Below, piece after piece: positions 7,345 through 16,030 of a DNA stretch of 64,000 bases (position 1 is its first letter; every line of letters begins with the position of its first letter). Source of the DNA: Bacteroidota bacterium. Its GTDB lineage: Bacteria; Bacteroidota; Bacteroidia; Chitinophagales; Chitinophagaceae. The notes beneath the pieces are model-generated. The model did no database searches. It saw only the letters and a program-made list of their open reading frames with translations, and was not told the DNA's origin. The position numbers were made by a program, and so were the translations under genes. The stretch is taken from the NCBI GenBank assembly GCA_026391455.1, contig JAPLEH010000070.1, positions 62,001-126,000 of the forward strand, written 5' to 3'.

Positions 7345-8049
7345 ATGTCAAGAAGTTTTGATATAGTAGACACCAAAGTAGAAGAGTGTGAATTCTTTCT
7401 TACTAAACTTGGAGAAACTATTGAATTATGGCCAATGTCGCAAGAACCACAATTTTATTTAAGCGCATTTGCTTCAGCCACACGAAGTATAACATTTACT
7501 ATTCAAGCCTCTATATCGGATATTCCAAATTTTGCTGAATGGTATGAGAAGCATCGAATAAATTTAAAAAACAATAAGCTTGCAAAATATTTCGTGGAGG
7601 CAAGGAATTCATCTCAAAAAATAGGATACTATCTGATTGGAGGTAGACAATCAAACTATGATGAACAAGCAAATAAGATTACGCACTTCTATTTTCAGTA
7701 TATAAGCAATTTTAAAATTGAAGACTTTCCAGACGAAGATGTTTTGTTAAGCTGTAACTATTATTTCAAGGCTCTCTTAGAAATTGTAAGAGACTGTTAT
7801 ATTGTTTTTGGAACTACTATTGATCCTGAAAAGTTTTTCACTTATGAGAATTTAGTTAATAGTAACAAGACAATAGAAGATTTTGAAGAACAAGCAGGAT
7901 ACCCAAGAGGACATACTAATATTCCAGGATTCTCAATTAAAGAAAGGATCGACCTAATAAGCAGACATCATCCCTCATCAAGAATCGATTGGATTATAGA
8001 AAAGTATTTAGGCACAAATAGGTTTGGCGAAAATGATGAAACCAACTAA
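7345..8049 (+). CDS. Unknown island protein, 234 residues
   Basis: No signal peptide or membrane segment, so probably cytoplasmic. The sequence is rich in Phe, Tyr, Ile and Lys and is AT-rich in codon choice, like the neighbouring large island genes and unlike the flanking chromosome. The first half looks helical ('FASATRSITFTIQASISD', then 'KLAKYFVEARNSSQK'), a pattern loosely like HEPN-type helical proteins. The HEPN catalytic R-x4-6-H is not convincing: 'RNSSQK' has no His. It stands alone between two long gaps. I do not recognise the family. It could be a separate cargo gene of the island. Confidence 0.75.
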   Translation: MSRSFDIVDTKVEECEFFLTKLGETIELWPMSQEPQFYLSAFASATRSITFTIQASISDIPNFAEWYEKHRINLKNNKLAKYFVEARNSSQKIGYYLIGGRQSNYDEQANKITHFYFQYISNFKIEDFPDEDVLLSCNYYFKALLEIVRDCYIVFGTTIDPEKFFTYENLVNSNKTIEDFEEQAGYPRGHTNIPGFSIKERIDLISRHHPSSRIDWIIEKYLGTNRFGENDETN

Positions 8050-8449
8050 ACCTGCAGCCAAAAAACGGTTTTGGGCAAATGTGACAGGATAAATTAATTT
8101 CAGCCAACTGCATCACCGATATTCAGTTCTGGCAGGACGCTCAATTTTGGGCTTTAGTTCTTAACTTCATCTAAACAAAACATCAGCTGCGGTTCAGGGC
8201 GGAAAGTTGGAAAATACCACACCAGCCCAAAGCCGCCGACGTTAGCAGAAACCCAATGGCGACAGTACAAACTTGAAACTTTGGTGCTTTTAATCAACTG
8301 ACATATGAAAAAAAACATATCCGACAGACATAGTTTCACACGACCAAGCCTTTGCTTCGTTTTTTATTTTTTGCCAACGCACATATTCTTTAATTTAATT
8401 TTTCAACGCTTAAATAAAAATATTTTAGCGAAAAGTATCAACCATAAAT
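8050..8449. other. Long AT-rich gap before the HATPase/PRTase operon
   Basis: No convincing ORF on either strand. The left part is of mixed composition with repeated TTTTGGGC words near 8072 and 8147 and a GACGTTAGC-containing segment near 8238-8246. The right part, from about 8340, is very AT-rich and should contain the operon promoter. A near-perfect 24-bp palindrome lies just upstream of the ATG at 8450. Confidence 0.4.
8407..8430. promoter_or_regulatory. 24-bp near-perfect palindrome upstream of the island operon
   Basis: CGCTTAAATA and TATTTTAGCG are inverted with a 4-base centre and a single mismatch. The right edge is 19 bases upstream of the ATG of the 1772-codon gene. It could be an operator for an autoregulator or a stem in the leader RNA. 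No regulator gene is adjacent, so the binding partner is unknown. Confidence 0.4.
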
Positions 8450-11400
8450 ATGAGAATAGAATTTGATGCAAAATTTACATCAAGAGACCTCACAACATTC
8501 ATAAATGTTTACTACGAGAAGTCAATGAATGCCAGTGAAGTTATCTTCTCTATGAAGAAACTTGAATGGATAGCCGTTGAGGAATTAACATTTTTGTTTG
8601 GATGGATTAGGAATGTGAAATTTAATAACGAAAAACTTAAAATGATTTTCGTTGAATTACCCACAATCAACCAAACAGAACCAGAAGACTTCAAAGACGA
8701 AAAAGAAAAAGATGAAACGATTAGGAGAAGAAGAACAAGACTAATAAGTCTTGTTGAGAATTGGAAAATAATCTCCGCTTGTGGTTTGGCTGCGGACGAA
8801 ATTAACATTAACAGGGACATAAATTCTTACTTAGGAAAAAGTCATTTAACAGATAATAATTGGCACAGTATTATTCCATTCAAAGCAATCCCATTTTTAA
8901 ATTATCATAGCTACAACGAGTTACGGGAAAATATAAAATCAGAGGTTGAAGGAAAATTTAAACTGCAAGAACGAACAATAAAACTATTAACGAGCCATAC
9001 AACAAAATCAATTTTTGACAACAAGACTTTAAGCAACATTATTACAACAGAGTTATACCTAAACTCGTTGCACCATTCTTTTAATCCTGATCCAGAATTT
9101 GAAAATAAAGAATGCTATTTTTCAATTTCCCTAAGAAACAAGATTGACATTGCTAAATATATTGAAACCAAAAAAAAGGAAGGTCTTGAACTAACAACTG
9201 AGGCGGCAGAGAAAAAAATTCAAGGAATTTTATCTTCAAATTCTGAATCTGAAAGAATTAAGATTGAACGGAACTATTTTAAAAGTGACAAAGGTAATCA
9301 GATAAGAAATGACACTTTTATTGAATTCACTTTTTTAGATTTTGGAAAGGGAATTCCTTCAACACTTAGAAAAAAATACCGTGAGGAATTAAACGATGCT
9401 GAAAGAAGGGAACTCTTAAAGCAACAACTTTCTGACAAGCATTTTGAAAGCAGCAAATCAGAAAAAGTAAATGAAGACTCATTGATAATTGAATATGCCT
9501 TTCTACTTCATTCTTCCAGTAATCCATTCAATAAACAGTTACAAATAAATGATTATGTTCCAAGAGGTTTGTTTTTCCTTATTGACATGGTCAAAAGATA
9601 CAACGGAATGGTTGTCGTTAAAAGCAACAATGGATGTGTTTCATATTCGTTTGATGACACCAGTAAGCCGACAAAGGATTGTATAAGTTTTTCTGAAGAA
9701 ACAAATGATAATTTCCCTGGAACTTTAATATCTATTTACATTCCAGCAGAAGTAAAAGACAAACGAGTAAAAGTAAATGCTGTTGAAAGAGTATTAACCC
9801 AAAGCAGTACCTCACAAAAAAGGGAAATCAAATACATTGGAATATCGGAGATACTCAAAGAGAGCAATCAATTTCAAAAGCAGACGTCTGAACTTCAAAT
9901 AAATGGTTACTACGATAAAACATTTGAAATTCTAAACGATTCACTTGATAAATACAATCAAGAACCAACATTATTAATAGTTGATTTTGCAGGATGTGAT
10001 TCATCAATTATTGACCACAAAATTTACTATTATCTTTCAAATACTCCAAAAATAAATTTCCAAACAACTCTTGTAATCATTAACGGCACAGATAAGAATG
10101 TTATCACAGACGTTCAAAAGAGCATAGCAATTTCAGATGATTTATTATTTAGACCAATCCCTTGTATAATTTCAAAGGAAGAAGTCATTTGGATAGGAAT
10201 TAAAAATCTTAATGACGAACCACTATTAAATAAACTTTGGCAATACGCTGATGGAGGATTTTCAGAAGCAGCAAGTGAATTCAAAAACACTGACCAATTA
10301 AAGGGTAACGTAATAGAAATAAATTGGATTGGTAAAGACGAAAAACATGGAAACATTTCTGTCTTCATTCCATCAAAAGATAAAGTTTTTGAATATTACT
10401 CATACGATTACACACCCAAAAAATATTTAAAGCAGATTCTTTTCAAAGAGGAAAAGCACAAAGTTTTAAGAAGGCAAGACAATACTGTTTATTGGACATC
10501 AGGAGGATATTATCAAACTGAATTCATTCGATTCATTGAGAAGCTCTATGAAATAAATTTAGGTACTCAAACCCCTACCAAATATCCAAATGATTTTGAA
10601 TTCGGAAGAAAAGTTTCCGAATACTTAATTAGGAAATTTGAATTACTAAAAGGTGATTTGAATTTTGATTATATCGTTAGCGTAACATTAAGTAGCCAGC
10701 TTCTTGCAAATTCTGTAAGAAACATCTATTGTGAATTAAAAGGCATTCCAAAGGGAGAAGAGCCTCAAATAATTCGACTCGCAAATTATTATGAATTCAC
10801 TACTGAGAAAGCGTTCAAAAAAATTGAGAAAGGAAAAAAGGTTTTAATTGTCAATGATGTTATTTCAACGGGAAAGTTGAGCAATGAAATTTATGAAAGT
10901 TTGATAGTAGAAAAAGATGCAAATGTAGTCGGTATATTTTCTTTAGTTGATTCAAGACAACCTAAAAATGAAAAGTGGGAAATTGACCACTTCTATTTTG
11001 AGTCTATAGACGATAATACTATTTGGCTTCTAAAATATCCCGTAAAAAAATACGCAGAGTATAGAACCATTGACAAAAAATATGAAAATGATAAACCTAA
11101 AATAATTTCCATTGACCCAGTAATAAACACTCCAAATACAATGAGTTATCAAAGGAGTGATACGGATAGATTAATTTACTCCGACTTTGCCACTGATTCA
11201 GTTTTCGATTCAAAGAATTTTTTACAAAAATTTGAAGACCCTAATAGATTGTGGGTAGGACATTTGCACCACAATGTGGCACATCACAGTTATTATTTTC
11301 GATTACACAATTGGTTTGAAAGCGAATCTGGAAAGAATTTAATCAAACAACTCATAACGGAGATAAAAAACAATTATCAGAGTAAATCTTTTCAAGACGA

Positions 11401-13768
11401 GAATAAGAAAAGGAGAAAAAATGTTTTGTCTTTTATCGGTGAGGAACTAAAAAAATTTGAAAATTATTTTTCTACTGATGAAAACATAAAAGTTCAATAT
11501 CAAAACGTAATTAATGAATTGAACTCATTGGAAGAACTTACAGGCAACGATTCGCCATTAAGTAATATTGAAACTGACATTATTTTCTATCCAATGTATA
11601 GCGGGTCAGAAGTTTTTAATAGAGATGATTACAGAGATATTTTTGAAATTAAAGAACACTCGAAATTTATTCTTTTCCCTTTAGGTAGAGTAGATAGTCC
11701 AAAAGGTTGGCGTTTTACTTTTCCACCAAAGGTTTTAAATGAAATCACAGAATCGTATAAAAATGTTTTCATCATTGATGATGGAACATGCACAGGTGAA
11801 ACATTAATGCAGACAATAGATTCCGTGGCATTCTTAAACGTAAATCGAATTACCGTTTTATCTGTTGTAGGTAGATTAGAAGATTTTCAAAGGGAATTTT
11901 TTACACGATTACATTCTATAAAAGTAAAGTATGAGCAGAAAAAAAACCCTCATACCAAAGAAAGAGAAGTAAAAGATAGAGTTGTTCCATTGAGTATTTA
12001 TTTTGGAGTTCACTTTCATATTCAAGTTTATCCCGCATTTACGGATGTGTGTCCATTCTGCGAAGAAGAAAGAACTCTAAAAAAAGAGCTTGAATCTAAG
12101 AATGTTCCTATTGCCCCAGTGAAGGAGTATATCAAGAAAAGACTTGACGAAATTAAATTGTTTGATACCGATGGTAGTTCGTTTGAAAACCCTTCTGATC
12201 TTTCAATAAAATATTCAGGATTGCCGCCCTATATCCCATCCGAAATTGATAGATACAAATTATTTGAGTATAGAGATAAAATTGGGAAACTTGCTTCATA
12301 CAGAACCTTTGCAGAATATTTACAAGACTTTGATAACAATGATTGGGAAATATGGATTGCAATTCTGCTTCATGAACCCAAACTAATTAAAATCATTGAC
12401 CAGTTGCTACCATCATTAAAAAGGTCATTGATAAATCACATTGAACGAATAATTACATTTAAAAATAAAGAACCCTTAAAATACAAATGGCATGTTTATG
12501 ATATTGTTAGGTTCTATTCAATAATTTTAGGAACAAACATTTTTAAGTATGAAACATTTAAGCAGCTAATAAAATATTCTTCTACTTCAAGTAAGAAAAC
12601 CAAAACAGAATCTGAATTTGAAACAACCATACAGTTCATAATTTATTTTGCATGGAAAAATTTAAAGTTTCCAGAGAAAAAAGAAAGACAGTTAAAAAAA
12701 CCTGAAATTATTTTCAACATAGAAAAATATTGGATTAAAGATTTAAAGCCAAACGAGAAAATACTGAAAGAAGATGCAGGGAATGCTATGAGATTTAACT
12801 ATTTGAGAAATCTATTGCGTTTTACAATGCAAGAAAAAGAAAAAGCAATTCCAGCCGAACCTCAATATTCTTTCTCTAAAATCAAAACTTTTTATCTCAA
12901 ACTACAATCCGAGTATCCAAATCATGTAAAGGGTTTTTTAATTGATTTCAACAAGAATTTAAAATGGCTTCAGAAAATAAAAAATAATCTCAACAATAAT
13001 ATTCCTATTGAAGAATCTACAATTACTCAAATTAAGAGTTCGACAAAAAGTGTATTCAATGATTATAAGGATATTCTCATTTCACTCATTGAGTCTTCAA
13101 GTGAAGTAATTAGATTGACTTCTATTTACGATAGACACATAAAGGAAAATGGCATTCTAAAAACTTCAAAGCGAGTTGAAACCAAAGTTCAAGAATTAGC
13201 ACTTTCGAGTTTGTCAAAAGACGTTATTGGGGAAATTATAACTGACTTAGAAACACTCCAAAAAATATACTTGTCGGGAGAAGAAGAATTTGCAAAATAC
13301 TTTATTAATCACGACCCAATTCTTATAAATATTATTAATGAATGCGTTGATAAATTTAATGAAGGTAACAGTGATGATTTGAACAACTATAATGTTGTAA
13401 TAGATTGCAAAAGGCATAATAAAATATCTGATGAACAGATAAACATTCATCCCGAATTACTGAATATTGTTTTTGATTCCTTATTTGATAATGCCTTAAA
13501 GCACACTAAAAAACACTTTGACTACAAGCCACAAAAAGAGGCAGTAATAATCGCATCATTTGACTACAAAAAGAAAGATGATTTCGTTGAAATACTTCAT
13601 AAGCAAAATATCAAAAACAAAAATGAAATTGGAAGTGGTTATGATGATATAAATTTAATTGTCCAACATTTTGGCGGTAAGGTTACAATCAATACAAAAT
13701 CACATAACTTTGAAGTTGAGATTTTGCTTCCTATTTCAAAGTTGCAAATAAATGAAGAAAATGAATAA
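8450..13768 (+). CDS. Giant HATPase - PRTase - PRTase - HATPase-like protein, candidate conflict-system sensor
   Basis: 1772 residues, no signal or membrane segment. Order seen: an N-terminal STAS-like segment (1-70); a GHKL ATPase with N-box E201-L-Y-L-N205-S-L-H208, G1 box DFGKGIPS (297-304), PRGLFFL (371-377) and a GTLISIYIP strand to 432; an alpha/beta segment near 506-535; PRTase 1 with DYIVSV (740-745) and PRPP loop VLIVNDVISTGK (798-809); PRTase 2 with loop VFIIDDGTCTGE (1106-1117); a CPFC pair (1201-1204); a long helical region; and a C-terminal HATPase-like domain with DNALKHT (1680-1686) and GSGYDDINLIVQHFGG from 1728. The last domain lacks a clear G1 DxGxG. The downstream protease-like gene overlaps its end by 17 bases. 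ATP- and PRPP-binding are expected from the families; a defence role is inference from architecture and the AT-rich island. Confidence 0.8.
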   Translation: MRIEFDAKFTSRDLTTFINVYYEKSMNASEVIFSMKKLEWIAVEELTFLFGWIRNVKFNNEKLKMIFVELPTINQTEPEDFKDEKEKDETIRRRRTRLISLVENWKIISACGLAADEININRDINSYLGKSHLTDNNWHSIIPFKAIPFLNYHSYNELRENIKSEVEGKFKLQERTIKLLTSHTTKSIFDNKTLSNIITTELYLNSLHHSFNPDPEFENKECYFSISLRNKIDIAKYIETKKKEGLELTTEAAEKKIQGILSSNSESERIKIERNYFKSDKGNQIRNDTFIEFTFLDFGKGIPSTLRKKYREELNDAERRELLKQQLSDKHFESSKSEKVNEDSLIIEYAFLLHSSSNPFNKQLQINDYVPRGLFFLIDMVKRYNGMVVVKSNNGCVSYSFDDTSKPTKDCISFSEETNDNFPGTLISIYIPAEVKDKRVKVNAVERVLTQSSTSQKREIKYIGISEILKESNQFQKQTSELQINGYYDKTFEILNDSLDKYNQEPTLLIVDFAGCDSSIIDHKIYYYLSNTPKINFQTTLVIINGTDKNVITDVQKSIAISDDLLFRPIPCIISKEEVIWIGIKNLNDEPLLNKLWQYADGGFSEAASEFKNTDQLKGNVIEINWIGKDEKHGNISVFIPSKDKVFEYYSYDYTPKKYLKQILFKEEKHKVLRRQDNTVYWTSGGYYQTEFIRFIEKLYEINLGTQTPTKYPNDFEFGRKVSEYLIRKFELLKGDLNFDYIVSVTLSSQLLANSVRNIYCELKGIPKGEEPQIIRLANYYEFTTEKAFKKIEKGKKVLIVNDVISTGKLSNEIYESLIVEKDANVVGIFSLVDSRQPKNEKWEIDHFYFESIDDNTIWLLKYPVKKYAEYRTIDKKYENDKPKIISIDPVINTPNTMSYQRSDTDRLIYSDFATDSVFDSKNFLQKFEDPNRLWVGHLHHNVAHHSYYFRLHNWFESESGKNLIKQLITEIKNNYQSKSFQDENKKRRKNVLSFIGEELKKFENYFSTDENIKVQYQNVINELNSLEELTGNDSPLSNIETDIIFYPMYSGSEVFNRDDYRDIFEIKEHSKFILFPLGRVDSPKGWRFTFPPKVLNEITESYKNVFIIDDGTCTGETLMQTIDSVAFLNVNRITVLSVVGRLEDFQREFFTRLHSIKVKYEQKKNPHTKEREVKDRVVPLSIYFGVHFHIQVYPAFTDVCPFCEEERTLKKELESKNVPIAPVKEYIKKRLDEIKLFDTDGSSFENPSDLSIKYSGLPPYIPSEIDRYKLFEYRDKIGKLASYRTFAEYLQDFDNNDWEIWIAILLHEPKLIKIIDQLLPSLKRSLINHIERIITFKNKEPLKYKWHVYDIVRFYSIILGTNIFKYETFKQLIKYSSTSSKKTKTESEFETTIQFIIYFAWKNLKFPEKKERQLKKPEIIFNIEKYWIKDLKPNEKILKEDAGNAMRFNYLRNLLRFTMQEKEKAIPAEPQYSFSKIKTFYLKLQSEYPNHVKGFLIDFNKNLKWLQKIKNNLNNNIPIEESTITQIKSSTKSVFNDYKDILISLIESSSEVIRLTSIYDRHIKENGILKTSKRVETKVQELALSSLSKDVIGEIITDLETLQKIYLSGEEEFAKYFINHDPILINIINECVDKFNEGNSDDLNNYNVVIDCKRHNKISDEQINIHPELLNIVFDSLFDNALKHTKKHFDYKPQKEAVIIASFDYKKKDDFVEILHKQNIKNKNEIGSGYDDINLIVQHFGGKVTINTKSHNFEVEILLPISKLQINEENE

Positions 13769-15308
13769 TCGAATAATCCATTTCGTTTTCAATGAGGATA
13801 TTGAAAACGATACTTTAGGATCATTTAACACATCAATTTCAAATATTGGTATTCCAGTTTGGCCAGTTCCGTATGATATTTCCACTTTTCAAACTTGCTT
13901 AAAGGCATTGGGTAGCGGATTTAAAGTCAGTATTTGGGTTCATATACAAGCGAATGACCAAACAGAGCAGAAGCAGAAATTGAATAAATTGAAAGGAATC
14001 CTTTTTTTATCAAAAAAGTTTTACAAAGCGTTTGGCATTGACATAAGTATGAAGGTTCGCTTCGTTACAAGACTTCCAGTTCCAGAACAAGAAAAGTTCA
14101 AGAGTGTATTGTTAGACGACCAAACAATTTCAGTTCCAGTTTTTGTTGATACAGCAGTTGACAAGGAATGTTTGAAAGCAGATTGGTTAGTAAATGTTAG
14201 TGACATAAAAATTAAAGACGATGAATCAGACACAGAAGACGATTCTATATTAAGAATTCCATCTACAAGCCCATTTTTAATAAAGTTCTTGCAAGAGAAT
14301 AAAATTGATGAAGTAAACAAGAGTTTATGTTCAACGAAGGAATTCTTACTTCAAATTTCAGAGCAGCAAGACAAACTTTGGCACGAAGCCTTACTAAGAC
14401 TGATTGGCTTTGATATGCCGAACCCTTTTCAAAACAAGTATTGGGAATTTAATAAAGATGTATTTACAAATTCATTTACTCTAAATTCAACGGACACAAA
14501 TTATGTAGAAACTATCTCTAAAAACTTTTCTGACATTGAGGAAGATGTAAAACTAAATGCGGCTAAGAAACAATGGGAAATTAAATTGAATTTTTTCTAT
14601 GCTATATTTGAAAGAGAGAAGAATATTAAAGATGGTTTTGACTGGGCTAATGCACCTCAAGAAGCATCTGCACTTTATGTATTACACGAGGCTTTGCACC
14701 AAGAGCATAAATTAGACTACAGGACAGTAAGTGGAATCGGAAATTTTCCAAAGACTGTTGAAGATGCAGACTACCAAGCGGATGCCTTTGCAGTGATTAT
14801 TGAGTTTTGCAGATACTATTTTGAAAACAAGTCAGGTACATTAACATCAAAATCTTTAAGAGAAAAAATTGTAAGAATTATTCGTATTGCAATTGAAACA
14901 ACTTTCTCCTTTAATCCATTAGGGCAACTTAGTGGTATACAAATAAGGAGGGTTAACCGATATCTAATTTGGTTTTATCAAATAGGTTTAATTGAAAAGC
15001 GAATTACTGATTCCATTTCTTTAACTGTTGCGTTGACCGAAATATTAAATATTTTATCTGTAAAACCAGTTATTGAAATAAGTGGACCAGCAATGTATGT
15101 GAACAAGGCAAGGGATAGGATATTGTATGACTTAAGCGATTACAATAGACATGATGAGGAACTTGTAATTTTTAAGGACAATGTGATTGAACGATTTGGA
15201 AAGACAAGAGATTTTAAACTTGAAACACTTGTCGAAGGGTTCAAAAAATCTAACTACAAAATCATTTACGATTTCATTTCAAATCTGTTTTGGGCTAAAA
15301 CAAAATGA
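13752..15308 (+). CDS. HExxH metalloprotease-like partner of the HATPase/PRTase protein
   Basis: 518 residues, cytoplasmic. The N-terminal ~115 residues form an alpha/beta-looking domain of unknown type ('IIHFVFNEDIEND', 'FKVSIWVHIQAND'). A zinc protease motif H312-E-A-L-H316 sits in a helix ('YVLHEALHQEH'), followed by D338-A-D-Y-Q-A-D-A-F at 338-346. That arrangement parallels the HExxH plus E..AN.FA pattern of M78/ImmA-like peptidases, with Asp in place of Glu, though the match is by eye. The C-terminal ~170 residues are helical with a winged-helix-like stretch. The ATG lies inside the end of the upstream gene (17-base overlap; an alternative ATG three codons later), so the two are translationally coupled. 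Likely the effector or activator of the pair (inference). Confidence 0.72.
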   Translation: MKKMNNRIIHFVFNEDIENDTLGSFNTSISNIGIPVWPVPYDISTFQTCLKALGSGFKVSIWVHIQANDQTEQKQKLNKLKGILFLSKKFYKAFGIDISMKVRFVTRLPVPEQEKFKSVLLDDQTISVPVFVDTAVDKECLKADWLVNVSDIKIKDDESDTEDDSILRIPSTSPFLIKFLQENKIDEVNKSLCSTKEFLLQISEQQDKLWHEALLRLIGFDMPNPFQNKYWEFNKDVFTNSFTLNSTDTNYVETISKNFSDIEEDVKLNAAKKQWEIKLNFFYAIFEREKNIKDGFDWANAPQEASALYVLHEALHQEHKLDYRTVSGIGNFPKTVEDADYQADAFAVIIEFCRYYFENKSGTLTSKSLREKIVRIIRIAIETTFSFNPLGQLSGIQIRRVNRYLIWFYQIGLIEKRITDSISLTVALTEILNILSVKPVIEISGPAMYVNKARDRILYDLSDYNRHDEELVIFKDNVIERFGKTRDFKLETLVEGFKKSNYKIIYDFISNLFWAKTK

Positions 15309-15384
15309 CGAAACAAACAAAAGCCTACGCATATACTTCACACTTTTTAAAACCACACGAAGCCAAGTAAGACTAAATTTTTTA

Positions 15385-15430
15385 AGAGGGTGTTTTTTCG
15401 ATACCTAATAATTCACCCTTCCTTTTTTTT
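15385..15430 (+). terminator. Likely terminator of the island operon
   Basis: An AGGGTG / CACCCT stem around an AT-rich loop is followed by CC and eight T, about 80 bases after the protease-like gene stops. It indicates that the next gene is transcribed separately. Confidence 0.55.
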
Positions 15431-15529
15431 ACAATTTCTTTTCCCGATAATATTGTGTTAACGGTTATTGTAAAAGTGACAAGATCAAAAAAAATAACAA
15501 CAAATACTATTTGCTGATTTTTACCGGAG

Positions 15530-16030
15530 ATGAAAACTAAGACAACCATAAAACTACCGTTGACGGACATTGAGAAAGCAAGTTTGAGAAAGAATAAAAT
15601 CAAAATTGCTGCCCTGCTTGACTTTGCAACAGACGAATTGGAAGTGTTGTTAAACGCTACAACTGAACGGGCAAAGGAAATTTATGCGTTAGCCCAATTT
15701 CAAACTGTTCCCTCAGTCGGAATGAAGTTTGCCGAAGACCTTGTGTTTTTAGGTTATTATTCACTCAAAGAATTAAAACAGAAAGACGGAGCTAAACTTA
15801 CAGACGAATACGAACAGAAAAAAGGTTATTGGGTTGATCCTTGTGTAGAAGACCAGTTCCGATTAGTCGTAAATTTTGCGAATACATACGACATAAATAA
15901 AACCTGGTGGGACTTTACCGAAGAACGAAAAAAGTTTCGCACTGAAAACGGTTATCCTATAAGCAGACCTCAAAAACCCTGGTTTGAAACAGCAGGGTTT
16001 GAACGCAAAGAGAAGAAAGTCGCCCACTAA
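15530..16030 (+). CDS. Helix-hairpin-helix protein of the Cdd1 ('pathogenicity locus') type
   Basis: 166 residues. Residues about 20-50 are helical, followed by a helix-hairpin-helix-like segment 'TVPSVGMKFAEDLVFLGYYS', 'LKELKQKDGAKL', and a Cys/aromatic region 'YWVDPCVEDQFRLVV'. This order matches the small Cdd1-type proteins (known as PF11731), which are predicted nucleic-acid binders without a proven role. The C-terminal third is positively charged and ends in KKVAH. It sits at the right side of the AT-rich island after the operon terminator. Its GC content is between that of the island and the chromosome. Whether it belongs to the HATPase/PRTase system is unknown. Confidence 0.72.
   Translation: MKTKTTIKLPLTDIEKASLRKNKIKIAALLDFATDELEVLLNATTERAKEIYALAQFQTVPSVGMKFAEDLVFLGYYSLKELKQKDGAKLTDEYEQKKGYWVDPCVEDQFRLVVNFANTYDINKTWWDFTEERKKFRTENGYPISRPQKPWFETAGFERKEKKVAH

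What the first reader, a model, noticed from the sequence alone, without database searches (positions are those of the whole stretch)
8450..15308. Candidate undescribed two-gene system: HATPase-PRTase-PRTase-HATPase protein plus metalloprotease
A 1772-residue protein joins an N-terminal STAS-like segment, a GHKL ATPase, two phosphoribosyltransferase-like domains, a CPFC pair and a second HATPase-like domain, and is translationally coupled (17-base overlap) to a 518-residue HExxH protein. The operon is in a visibly AT-rich island and ends at its own terminator. Fused sensory ATPases with coupled proteases are typical of conflict systems, but I know no named defence system with this exact arrangement. 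The domains are seen directly; the defence role is inferred.
Basis: partly seen in the sequence, partly recalled or inferred. Interest (0 to 1): 0.93.

Follow-up and report, generated by a model that had tools for sequence, protein, structure and literature searches.

The report
Giant sensor with swappable killer enzymes
A Bacteroidetes genome carries an apparently unreported two-gene system, probably anti-phage, in which a giant ATP- and nucleotide-binding-type protein is paired with an interchangeable, probably toxic enzyme: a protease here, a TIR or nucleoside-cutting type in relatives.

Summary
The core observation holds: a 1772-aa ORF (8450-13768) and a 518-aa ORF (13752-15308) overlap by 17 nt in an AT-rich block (30-33% against 46% G+C). 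The large protein has one clear and one weaker phosphoribosyltransferase (PRTase) domain, conserved GHKL ATP-site motifs near the N-terminus and a degenerate C-terminal HATPase; STAS is unproven. Nine loci of the family were found (Bacteroidetes, one Nitrospiraceae MAG, two distant relatives). In 8 of 8 not cut by a contig end, a partner gene follows at -29 to +9 nt. The partner changes: metallopeptidase (window), nucleoside-phosphorylase-like (4), TIR (1), kinase-like (1), receiver protein (1). The six closer partners share an N-terminal domain although their catalytic domains differ. In nine of 12 congeneric stretches the flanking genes, or homologues of the next ones, lie 0.2-1.9 kb apart without the block. 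Pfam-supported restriction or Wadjet neighbours occur at three of nine loci, mobile-element genes at one more. Most likely an abortive-infection sensor with exchangeable effectors, working like Detocs (PADLOC PDC-M60) and CBASS but failing membership tests of both. Defence activity, signal and activation mechanism are inferred. No description was found in the paper library searched.

The parts
7345..16030 (.). AT-rich block holding the system plus a 234-aa ORF upstream and a Cdd1-type gene downstream; not found at this place in relatives
   Evidence: G+C; 9 of 12 fetched same-genus stretches have the flanking genes, or homologues of the next ones, as near neighbours, and 0 of 12 has a homologue (tblastn 1e-10) of the 7345, 8450, 13752 or 15530 genes
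8450..13768 (+). Giant sensor/switch protein, 1772 aa
   Evidence: homologues
8450..8659 (+).
   Evidence: predicted strand-helix order, pLDDT block means 68-81; W40 and I53 invariant in 8 rows
9017..9754 (+). GHKL/HATPase 1; N-box 9050-9079, G1 box 9335-9355, G2 box 9560-9580
   Evidence: motifs conserved 8 of 8; database support weak
9824..10249 (+). Unassigned alpha/beta domain
   Evidence: secondary structure of model; no significant PDB profile match
10598..11035 (+). PRTase domain 1, loop VNDVISTG at 10850-10873
11576..12049 (+). PRTase domain 2, loop IDDGTCTGE at 11774-11800
12050..12061 (+). CPFC motif (CPxC in 6 of 8 homologues)
13367..13744 (+). Degenerate C-terminal HATPase
13752..15308 (+). 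Effector, 518 aa, overlapping the sensor by 17 nt
13752..14141 (+). N-terminal domain shared by peptidase, phosphorylase-like and TIR effectors (proposed adaptor)
   Evidence: leave-one-out profile test, window member E 2.6e-6 among shuffles; F25, H64, G82 invariant in six rows
14358..15278 (+). Metallopeptidase domain, HEALH at 14685-14699, DYQADAF at 14769-14789
   Evidence: PADLOC PDLC00754 7.1e-50 and PDLC02018 SAVED_peptidaseM48 2.3e-17; motifs; no significant Pfam or PDB sequence match

Best explanation
A mobile anti-phage (abortive-infection) module. The giant protein is a sensor and switch; the partner is a toxic enzyme controlled by it. Proposed mechanism: the PRTase pair binds a nucleotide-like or PRPP-like ligand whose level changes on infection; this alters the ATP-dependent state of the N-terminal GHKL domain; the changed sensor activates or releases the effector through the effector's N-terminal adaptor domain; the effector then kills or arrests the cell, here by proteolysis, in relatives by nucleoside/ATP cleavage or TIR-type NAD cleavage. 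Shown by sequence: two-gene coupling, domain order, conserved ATP-site motifs, effector swapping, shared N-terminal domain, absence of the block from relatives. Inferred: defence role, direction of control, ligand, direct contact, enzyme activities.
For: Partner adjacency in 8 of 8 full-length loci, spacing -29 to +9 nt. Close-family effectors: peptidase, PNP_UDP_1 in four, CAP12-PCTIR_TIR 5.9e-24. Each of six effector N-termini ranks first among 2000 shuffles of itself with a profile made from the other five, E 3.7e-32 to 0.011; a search of 232 Bacteroidia genomes with that domain found it in two, both sensor-bearing and both already in the model. Motifs: a D-containing motif in 4 of 4 phosphorylase-like effectors and EMES/EMEG in 3 of 4 by the pattern used (L013 has GLEMESY, outside the pattern); NVIHEAG in the TIR (catalytic meaning recalled). 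Effector types are mixed on the sensor tree: the window peptidase groups with the L017 phosphorylase (support 89), apart from three other phosphorylase loci. Neighbours: Wadjet-type genes, Methylase_S and T1RH-like_C ORFs at L013, GmrSD at L016, C5 methylase at L036, serine recombinase, coupling-type ATPase and ArdC at L014. Distant relatives pair the same motif order with a Pfam receiver protein (4.7e-9) or an APH-like protein (2.8e-6) near a caspase-like gene (PADLOC 3.1e-18).
Against: No experiment. None of the five sensors scanned matches a PADLOC model. At L015, L017 and L018 no restriction gene was recognised; these neighbourhoods were read from ORF lists, not systematically scanned, and L018 lies beside Rnf-like genes by my reading. 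Context rests on nine loci with no background control. PRTase-ligand sensing has no direct support, and the PRTase 1 loop is lost in L031 and altered in L036. N-domain membership is weakest for L013 (0.011) and the TIR (0.0011), and in an earlier run without the window member the TIR N-terminus ranked 21st. The effector model is poor (pLDDT 47.6).
Confidence: 0.6

Rival explanations
1. It is a derived Detocs-type two-component defence system: the C-terminal HATPase is a histidine kinase that phosphorylates a receiver at the effector N-terminus.
For: Of 18 plasmid records matching the L017 phosphorylase effector, 7 of the 12 listed are annotated response regulator; both neighbourhoods scanned are PDC-M60A + PDC-M60B (receiver) + PDC-M60C (receiver-phosphorylase). 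L036, a distant relative, has a Pfam receiver partner. The C-terminal HATPase profile matches histidine kinases and weakly one PDC-M60A protein (E 0.0041 among seven sequences). The low-confidence effector model starts as alternating strands and helices, with receivers among its weak matches, beside KaiC, TIR and other alpha/beta folds.
Against: The effector N-domain profile does not find the L031 or L036 N-termini above shuffles (268th of 1917 and 29th of 1747 listed; 110 and 17 of 200 shuffles score as well by hhalign) nor the plasmid receivers (best 0.31); no Asp is invariant among the six N-domains (invariant F, H, G); the C-terminal HATPase lacks DxGxG; whole-sensor profile against two M60A proteins E 0.26 and 0.62; no Foldseek match at E<=0.001.
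Confidence: 0.2
2. Toxin-antitoxin-like module: the sensor simply neutralises the enzyme and the pair persists by addiction.
For: Tight coupling and exchangeable enzymes; absence from relatives and a mobile context at L014.
Against: A 1584-1867-aa multidomain protein is far larger than usual antitoxins (recalled), and its N-terminal ATP-site residues are kept in 8 of 8, which suggests active switching.
Confidence: 0.12
3. A CBASS or Pycsar accessory or remnant using the same effectors.
For: Effector profiles in PADLOC are largely CBASS/Pycsar effectors.
Against: No nucleotidyltransferase or cyclase match among the four island genes scanned; no Pfam SAVED match listed for the window effector at E<=1.
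Confidence: 0.03
4. Metabolic or stress regulator using PRTase and HATPase domains, unrelated to phages.
For: PRTase-fold regulators such as PurR are among the Foldseek matches; no restriction neighbour recognised at several loci.
Against: Patchy distribution (2 of 395 phylum genomes; 3 of 394 family genomes), absence from relatives, toxic-type effectors, restriction neighbours at three loci.
Confidence: 0.05

Closest known systems
Detocs (defence two-component systems; identified with PADLOC PDC-M60 by my inference)
   Same: Large protein plus partner with N-terminal signalling domain and phosphorylase-type effector in a tight operon. PMC9966839 (one passage seen) describes Detocs as defence systems relying on ATP nucleosidases; details of DtcA/B/C are recalled, the primary paper was not held.
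   Different: Here one giant protein with two PRTase-type domains, no separate response-regulator gene between, an effector N-domain not recognised as a receiver in the six close members, and peptidase or TIR effectors as alternatives.
CBASS / Pycsar
   Same: Same effector classes: peptidase, phosphorylase (PN-superfamily), TIR.
   Different: No cyclase gene among island genes scanned; effectors carry a different N-terminal domain; no evidence for a second messenger.
MoxR-vWA (VMAP) ternary and related NTP-dependent conflict systems (PMC7159879, PMC8195603; passages seen)
   Same: Constant NTPase core with swappable effectors including TIR, phosphorylase, caspase; receiver domains occur among effectors.
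   Different: Core here is GHKL-PRTase, not MoxR/vWA; 'phosphoribosyl' does not occur in the main text of PMC7159879. The vWA gene upstream of the island is found full length in 18 of 42 genus genomes, own included, so it is not part of the block.
HEF_HK / Response_reg_2 two-component-like pairs (PMC8011034, abstract and outline seen)
   Same: GHKL plus receiver-like pair near restriction-modification genes.
   Different: No Pfam match of window proteins to those families (E<=1).
DprA-PRTase and retron PRTase defence proteins (PMC9122126, passages seen)
   Same: A PRTase domain in a defence setting.
   Different: There the PRTase is proposed as the effector; here two PRTase-type domains sit inside the sensor.

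Membership tests
Detocs / PDC-M60 | Large protein matching PDC-M60A | tested here: not met
   Window sensor: 0 PADLOC families at E<=1; L012 and L002 sensors none at 0.1; L031 and L036 sensors none at 0.01; family profile against two M60A proteins E 0.26 and 0.62. L015-L018 sensors not scanned with PADLOC
Detocs / PDC-M60 | Separate single-domain response regulator gene (M60B) between sensor and effector | tested here: not met
   Partner follows sensor directly in 8 of 8
Detocs / PDC-M60 | Effector with receiver domain plus phosphorylase | tested here: inconclusive
   Phosphorylase in 4 of 8 partners, PDC-M60C matches 3.2e-18 to 7.7e-37; receiver by Pfam only in distant L036, whose partner has no phosphorylase match; receiver homology of the close N-domain not supported
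CBASS | CD-NTase/cyclase next to the effector | tested here: not met
   None among the four island genes scanned
CBASS | CBASS-type effector catalytic domain | tested here: met
   PDLC00754 7.1e-50; that this model belongs to CBASS is recalled
MoxR-vWA ternary systems | MoxR AAA+ and conflict-type vWA core in the operon | tested here: not met
   Neither among the four island genes; the nearby vWA/YfbK gene has full-length matches in 18 of 42 genus genomes, own included
HEF_HK / Response_reg_2 | Pfam PF19191 and PF19192 | tested here: not met
   Not listed for window proteins at E<=1
Ter-associated PRTase_2 (PF15609) | Match above gathering score | tested here: not met
   25.1 bits against 28.8
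Anti-phage defence systems | Measured protection from phage | not testable with these tools
   needs plating assays

The most novel reading that the evidence does not exclude
A new class of prokaryotic immune switch: a GHKL-PRTase-PRTase-HATPase protein that reads a phosphoribosyl/nucleotide ligand directly and fires any of several killer enzymes through a dedicated adaptor domain, with neither a diffusible second messenger nor a phosphorelay; receiver-bearing versions would be its two-component relatives.
Probability: 0.35. Interest if true: 0.87.

Novelty: new variant of a known kind. Interest (0 to 1): 0.7.

Why it matters
Modular immunity is usually organised around cyclic nucleotides, NLR-like ATPases or phosphorelays (recalled). 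A GHKL-PRTase sensor that takes peptidase, phosphorylase or TIR effectors through one N-terminal domain would add another wiring principle and a candidate direct nucleotide sensor, and that domain gives a handle for finding further effectors. It would also bridge Detocs-like systems and CBASS effectors. At 6.9 kb the operon can be tested in laboratory hosts.

Tried and rejected
Single-protein pattern scans found nothing (genome contigs; viral contigs), nor did alignment A2 in viral contigs; only the three-row alignment recovered relatives (6 of 174 stretches, two of them already known). tblastn of sensors found none in plasmids (window, L031, L036) or phages (window), and of the window effector none in plasmids. 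The receiver reading of the effector N-domain was tested and not supported by sequence. A first leave-one-out script mis-read the window file, so its window result is void; in it (150 aa, window member missing) the TIR N-terminus ranked 21st; in the corrected run (140 aa, window included) it ranks first at E 1.1e-3. hhalign of the phosphorylase N-domains with the window and TIR N-domains scored above all 100 shuffles each, but at low probability (13.2% and 5.5%). HATPase 1 against a HATPase neighbour protein aligned only the G1 box. No perfect direct repeat of 16 nt or more bracketing the block was listed; promoter-like sites were fewer than in shuffles (32 against 38.3); the 400 bp upstream of the sensor are single-copy in this genome. 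Rows dropped: of 25 of 395 genomes with a hit, only G000, G217, G903, G1153 (by coordinates L017 and L015) and G868 were kept; the rest are short matches to the C-terminal HATPase or PRTase 1 part of the profile. In one search (4 of 375), G179 (short PRTase match) was dropped. Papers PMC7824862 and PMC9503650 came up repeatedly in listings and were not opened.
Full report
WHAT IS THERE. The window (G000, contig 16, bases 62001-126000) carries a 1772-aa ORF at 8450-13768 and a 518-aa ORF at 13752-15308, same strand, 17-nt overlap. They are 30.3% and 32.5% G+C against 46.0% for bases 16372-64000. The vWA/YfbK-type gene upstream has full-length matches of 68% identity or more in 18 of 42 genus genomes, own included; the other genomes show only shorter or more distant matches. 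It was used as an anchor. Of 12 stretches fetched downstream of it in relatives, five have a homologue of the 16372 gene 190-761 bp after it, and four more have homologues of the next genes (which resemble each other) 232-1896 bp after it; three show neither, one because the contig ends. None of the 12 has a homologue (tblastn 1e-10) of the 7345, 8450, 13752 or 15530 genes. In the window the gap is 10.5 kb. The block is most simply an insertion in this strain; its exact ends were not determined.

DOMAINS. PRTase 1 is secure. PRTase 2 rests on weaker profile hits and three invariant loop residues in 8 of 8 homologues; a CPxC pair follows it in 6 of 8. The N-terminal GHKL domain keeps N-box, G1 and G2 residues in 8 of 8 but has no significant library hit. 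The C-terminal HATPase matches histidine kinases as a profile but lacks the DxGxG box, so it may be inactive. The N-terminal 70 residues and region 459-600 are predicted alpha/beta units without identified relatives. The AlphaFold models are modest (sensor 1-1200 mean pLDDT 57.2; effector 47.6).

RELATIVES. Identities to the window sensor are 26-35% for the close full-length group and 17-18% for the distant pair, with the same order of motifs. The family is rare: window protein 1 of 97 relatives and 2 of 395 phylum genomes; L013-type protein 3 of 394 family genomes; these sets overlap, and own is counted in each.

PARTNERS. In all eight full-length loci a partner starts within -29 to +9 nt of the sensor stop. 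Close family: peptidase (window; PADLOC PDLC00754 7.1e-50), phosphorylase superfamily in L013, L015, L017, L018 (Pfam 2.4e-10, 1.1e-7, 1.3e-12, 9.1e-10), TIR in L014 (5.9e-24). Their first 140 aa are homologous: a profile of five finds the sixth ahead of 2000 shuffles in every case, E from 3.7e-32 to 0.011. That domain was found in 2 of 232 Bacteroidia genomes, both sensor-bearing members of the model. Distant loci: the L031 partner has an APH-like match (2.8e-6) and, by my reading only, receiver-like motifs; it is followed by a hydrolase-like ORF (my reading, no match) and a caspase-like ORF (PADLOC 3.1e-18). The L036 partner has a Pfam receiver (4.7e-9; PADLOC PDC-M43A 2.8e-6 over the same part) and a C-terminal region without a match. 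Effector types are mixed on the sensor tree (the node placing the distant pair has support 57).

CONTEXT. L013: three Wadjet-type genes by Pfam (DUF3375, SbcC-type ATPase, JetD; the fourth by position), Methylase_S just upstream, and downstream an hsdR-like ORF (my reading) with a T1RH-like_C ORF after it. L014: serine recombinase, coupling-type ATPase and ArdC. L016: GmrSD. L036: C5 methylase and a weak BpuJI-like ORF. L015 and L031: recombinase-like ORFs by my reading. L017: a Fic-like ORF by my reading. L018: Rnf-like genes by my reading. So restriction or Wadjet genes are supported by Pfam at three of nine loci, mobile-element genes at one more; not every neighbour was scanned and there is no background control.

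HOW IT PROBABLY WORKS. One conserved, large protein with an intact GHKL ATP site, paired with interchangeable enzymes of the kinds used by CBASS/Pycsar through a common N-terminal domain, is the anatomy of a sensor-effector immune module. The effectors imply killing or arrest: proteolysis here; nucleoside/ATP or NAD cleavage elsewhere. I propose ligand binding by the PRTase pair, an ATP-dependent GHKL switch, and effector activation through the N-terminal domain. Switch, ligand and contact are inference.

COMPARISON. The nearest published logic is Detocs. Of 18 plasmid records matching the L017 effector, two neighbourhoods (Sinorhizobium medicae, Sphingobium) were scanned and both match PDC-M60A, B and C; a third, K. 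aerogenes, was seen as annotation only. PMC11811056 (one passage seen) says PDC-M60 and other candidate sets coincide with systems named differently by DefenseFinder, and PMC9966839 (one passage seen) describes Detocs as defence systems using ATP nucleosidases. That PDC-M60 equals Detocs is my inference. Our sensor fails the PDC-M60A test, has no separate response regulator between, and its N-domain is not recognisably a receiver, so it may work like Detocs without being a member. DefensePredictor (PMC13092281, passages and legends seen) shows predicted systems with HATPase and receiver labels, and names a purine phosphorylase domain, for one figure panel; the figure was not available, so overlap with the present family cannot be excluded, although PRTase is not among the abbreviations of that legend. 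Paper searches for the combination gave no description in the listings and passages seen; two recurrent listings were not opened.

VERDICT. Real, conserved, apparently unreported; a new variant within modular sensor-effector immunity, with a new sensor type. Defence remains to be shown.

Noticed in passing
7345-8049: 234-aa ORF inside the AT-rich block, weak PADLOC SduA (DUF4263) match 7.7e-4; no homologue in 12 relatives' stretches. Possibly part of the cargo.
   Followed up: partly
15530-16030: Cdd1-type 'pathogenicity locus' protein (Pfam 7.3e-31) at the end of the block; no homologue in the 12 relatives' stretches.
   Followed up: no
L013 (also L004 and L005): The sensor-effector pair sits between a Methylase_S ORF and an hsdR-like ORF of a type I restriction locus, next to Wadjet-type genes.
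   Followed up: partly
L005:9296-10036: 247-aa protein with HATPase_c (2.6e-5) after the T1RH-like_C ORF; it matches the start of a PADLOC DrmA model of 1750 positions at 1e-13, an odd label worth checking.
   Followed up: no
L031:10500-16175: APH-like partner gene followed by hydrolase-like (my reading), caspase-like and unknown ORFs in one apparent operon after a distant sensor.
   Followed up: partly
L065:2388-7122: In a Klebsiella aerogenes plasmid the genes before the response-regulator phosphorylase are two hypothetical proteins separated by an IS3 transposase, perhaps one interrupted gene (annotation only).
   Followed up: no
L066:3922-7101: A PDC-M60A protein shows a weak match (E 0.0041 among seven sequences) to our C-terminal HATPase profile, hinting at a HATPase C-terminus although Pfam lists nothing.
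   Followed up: partly
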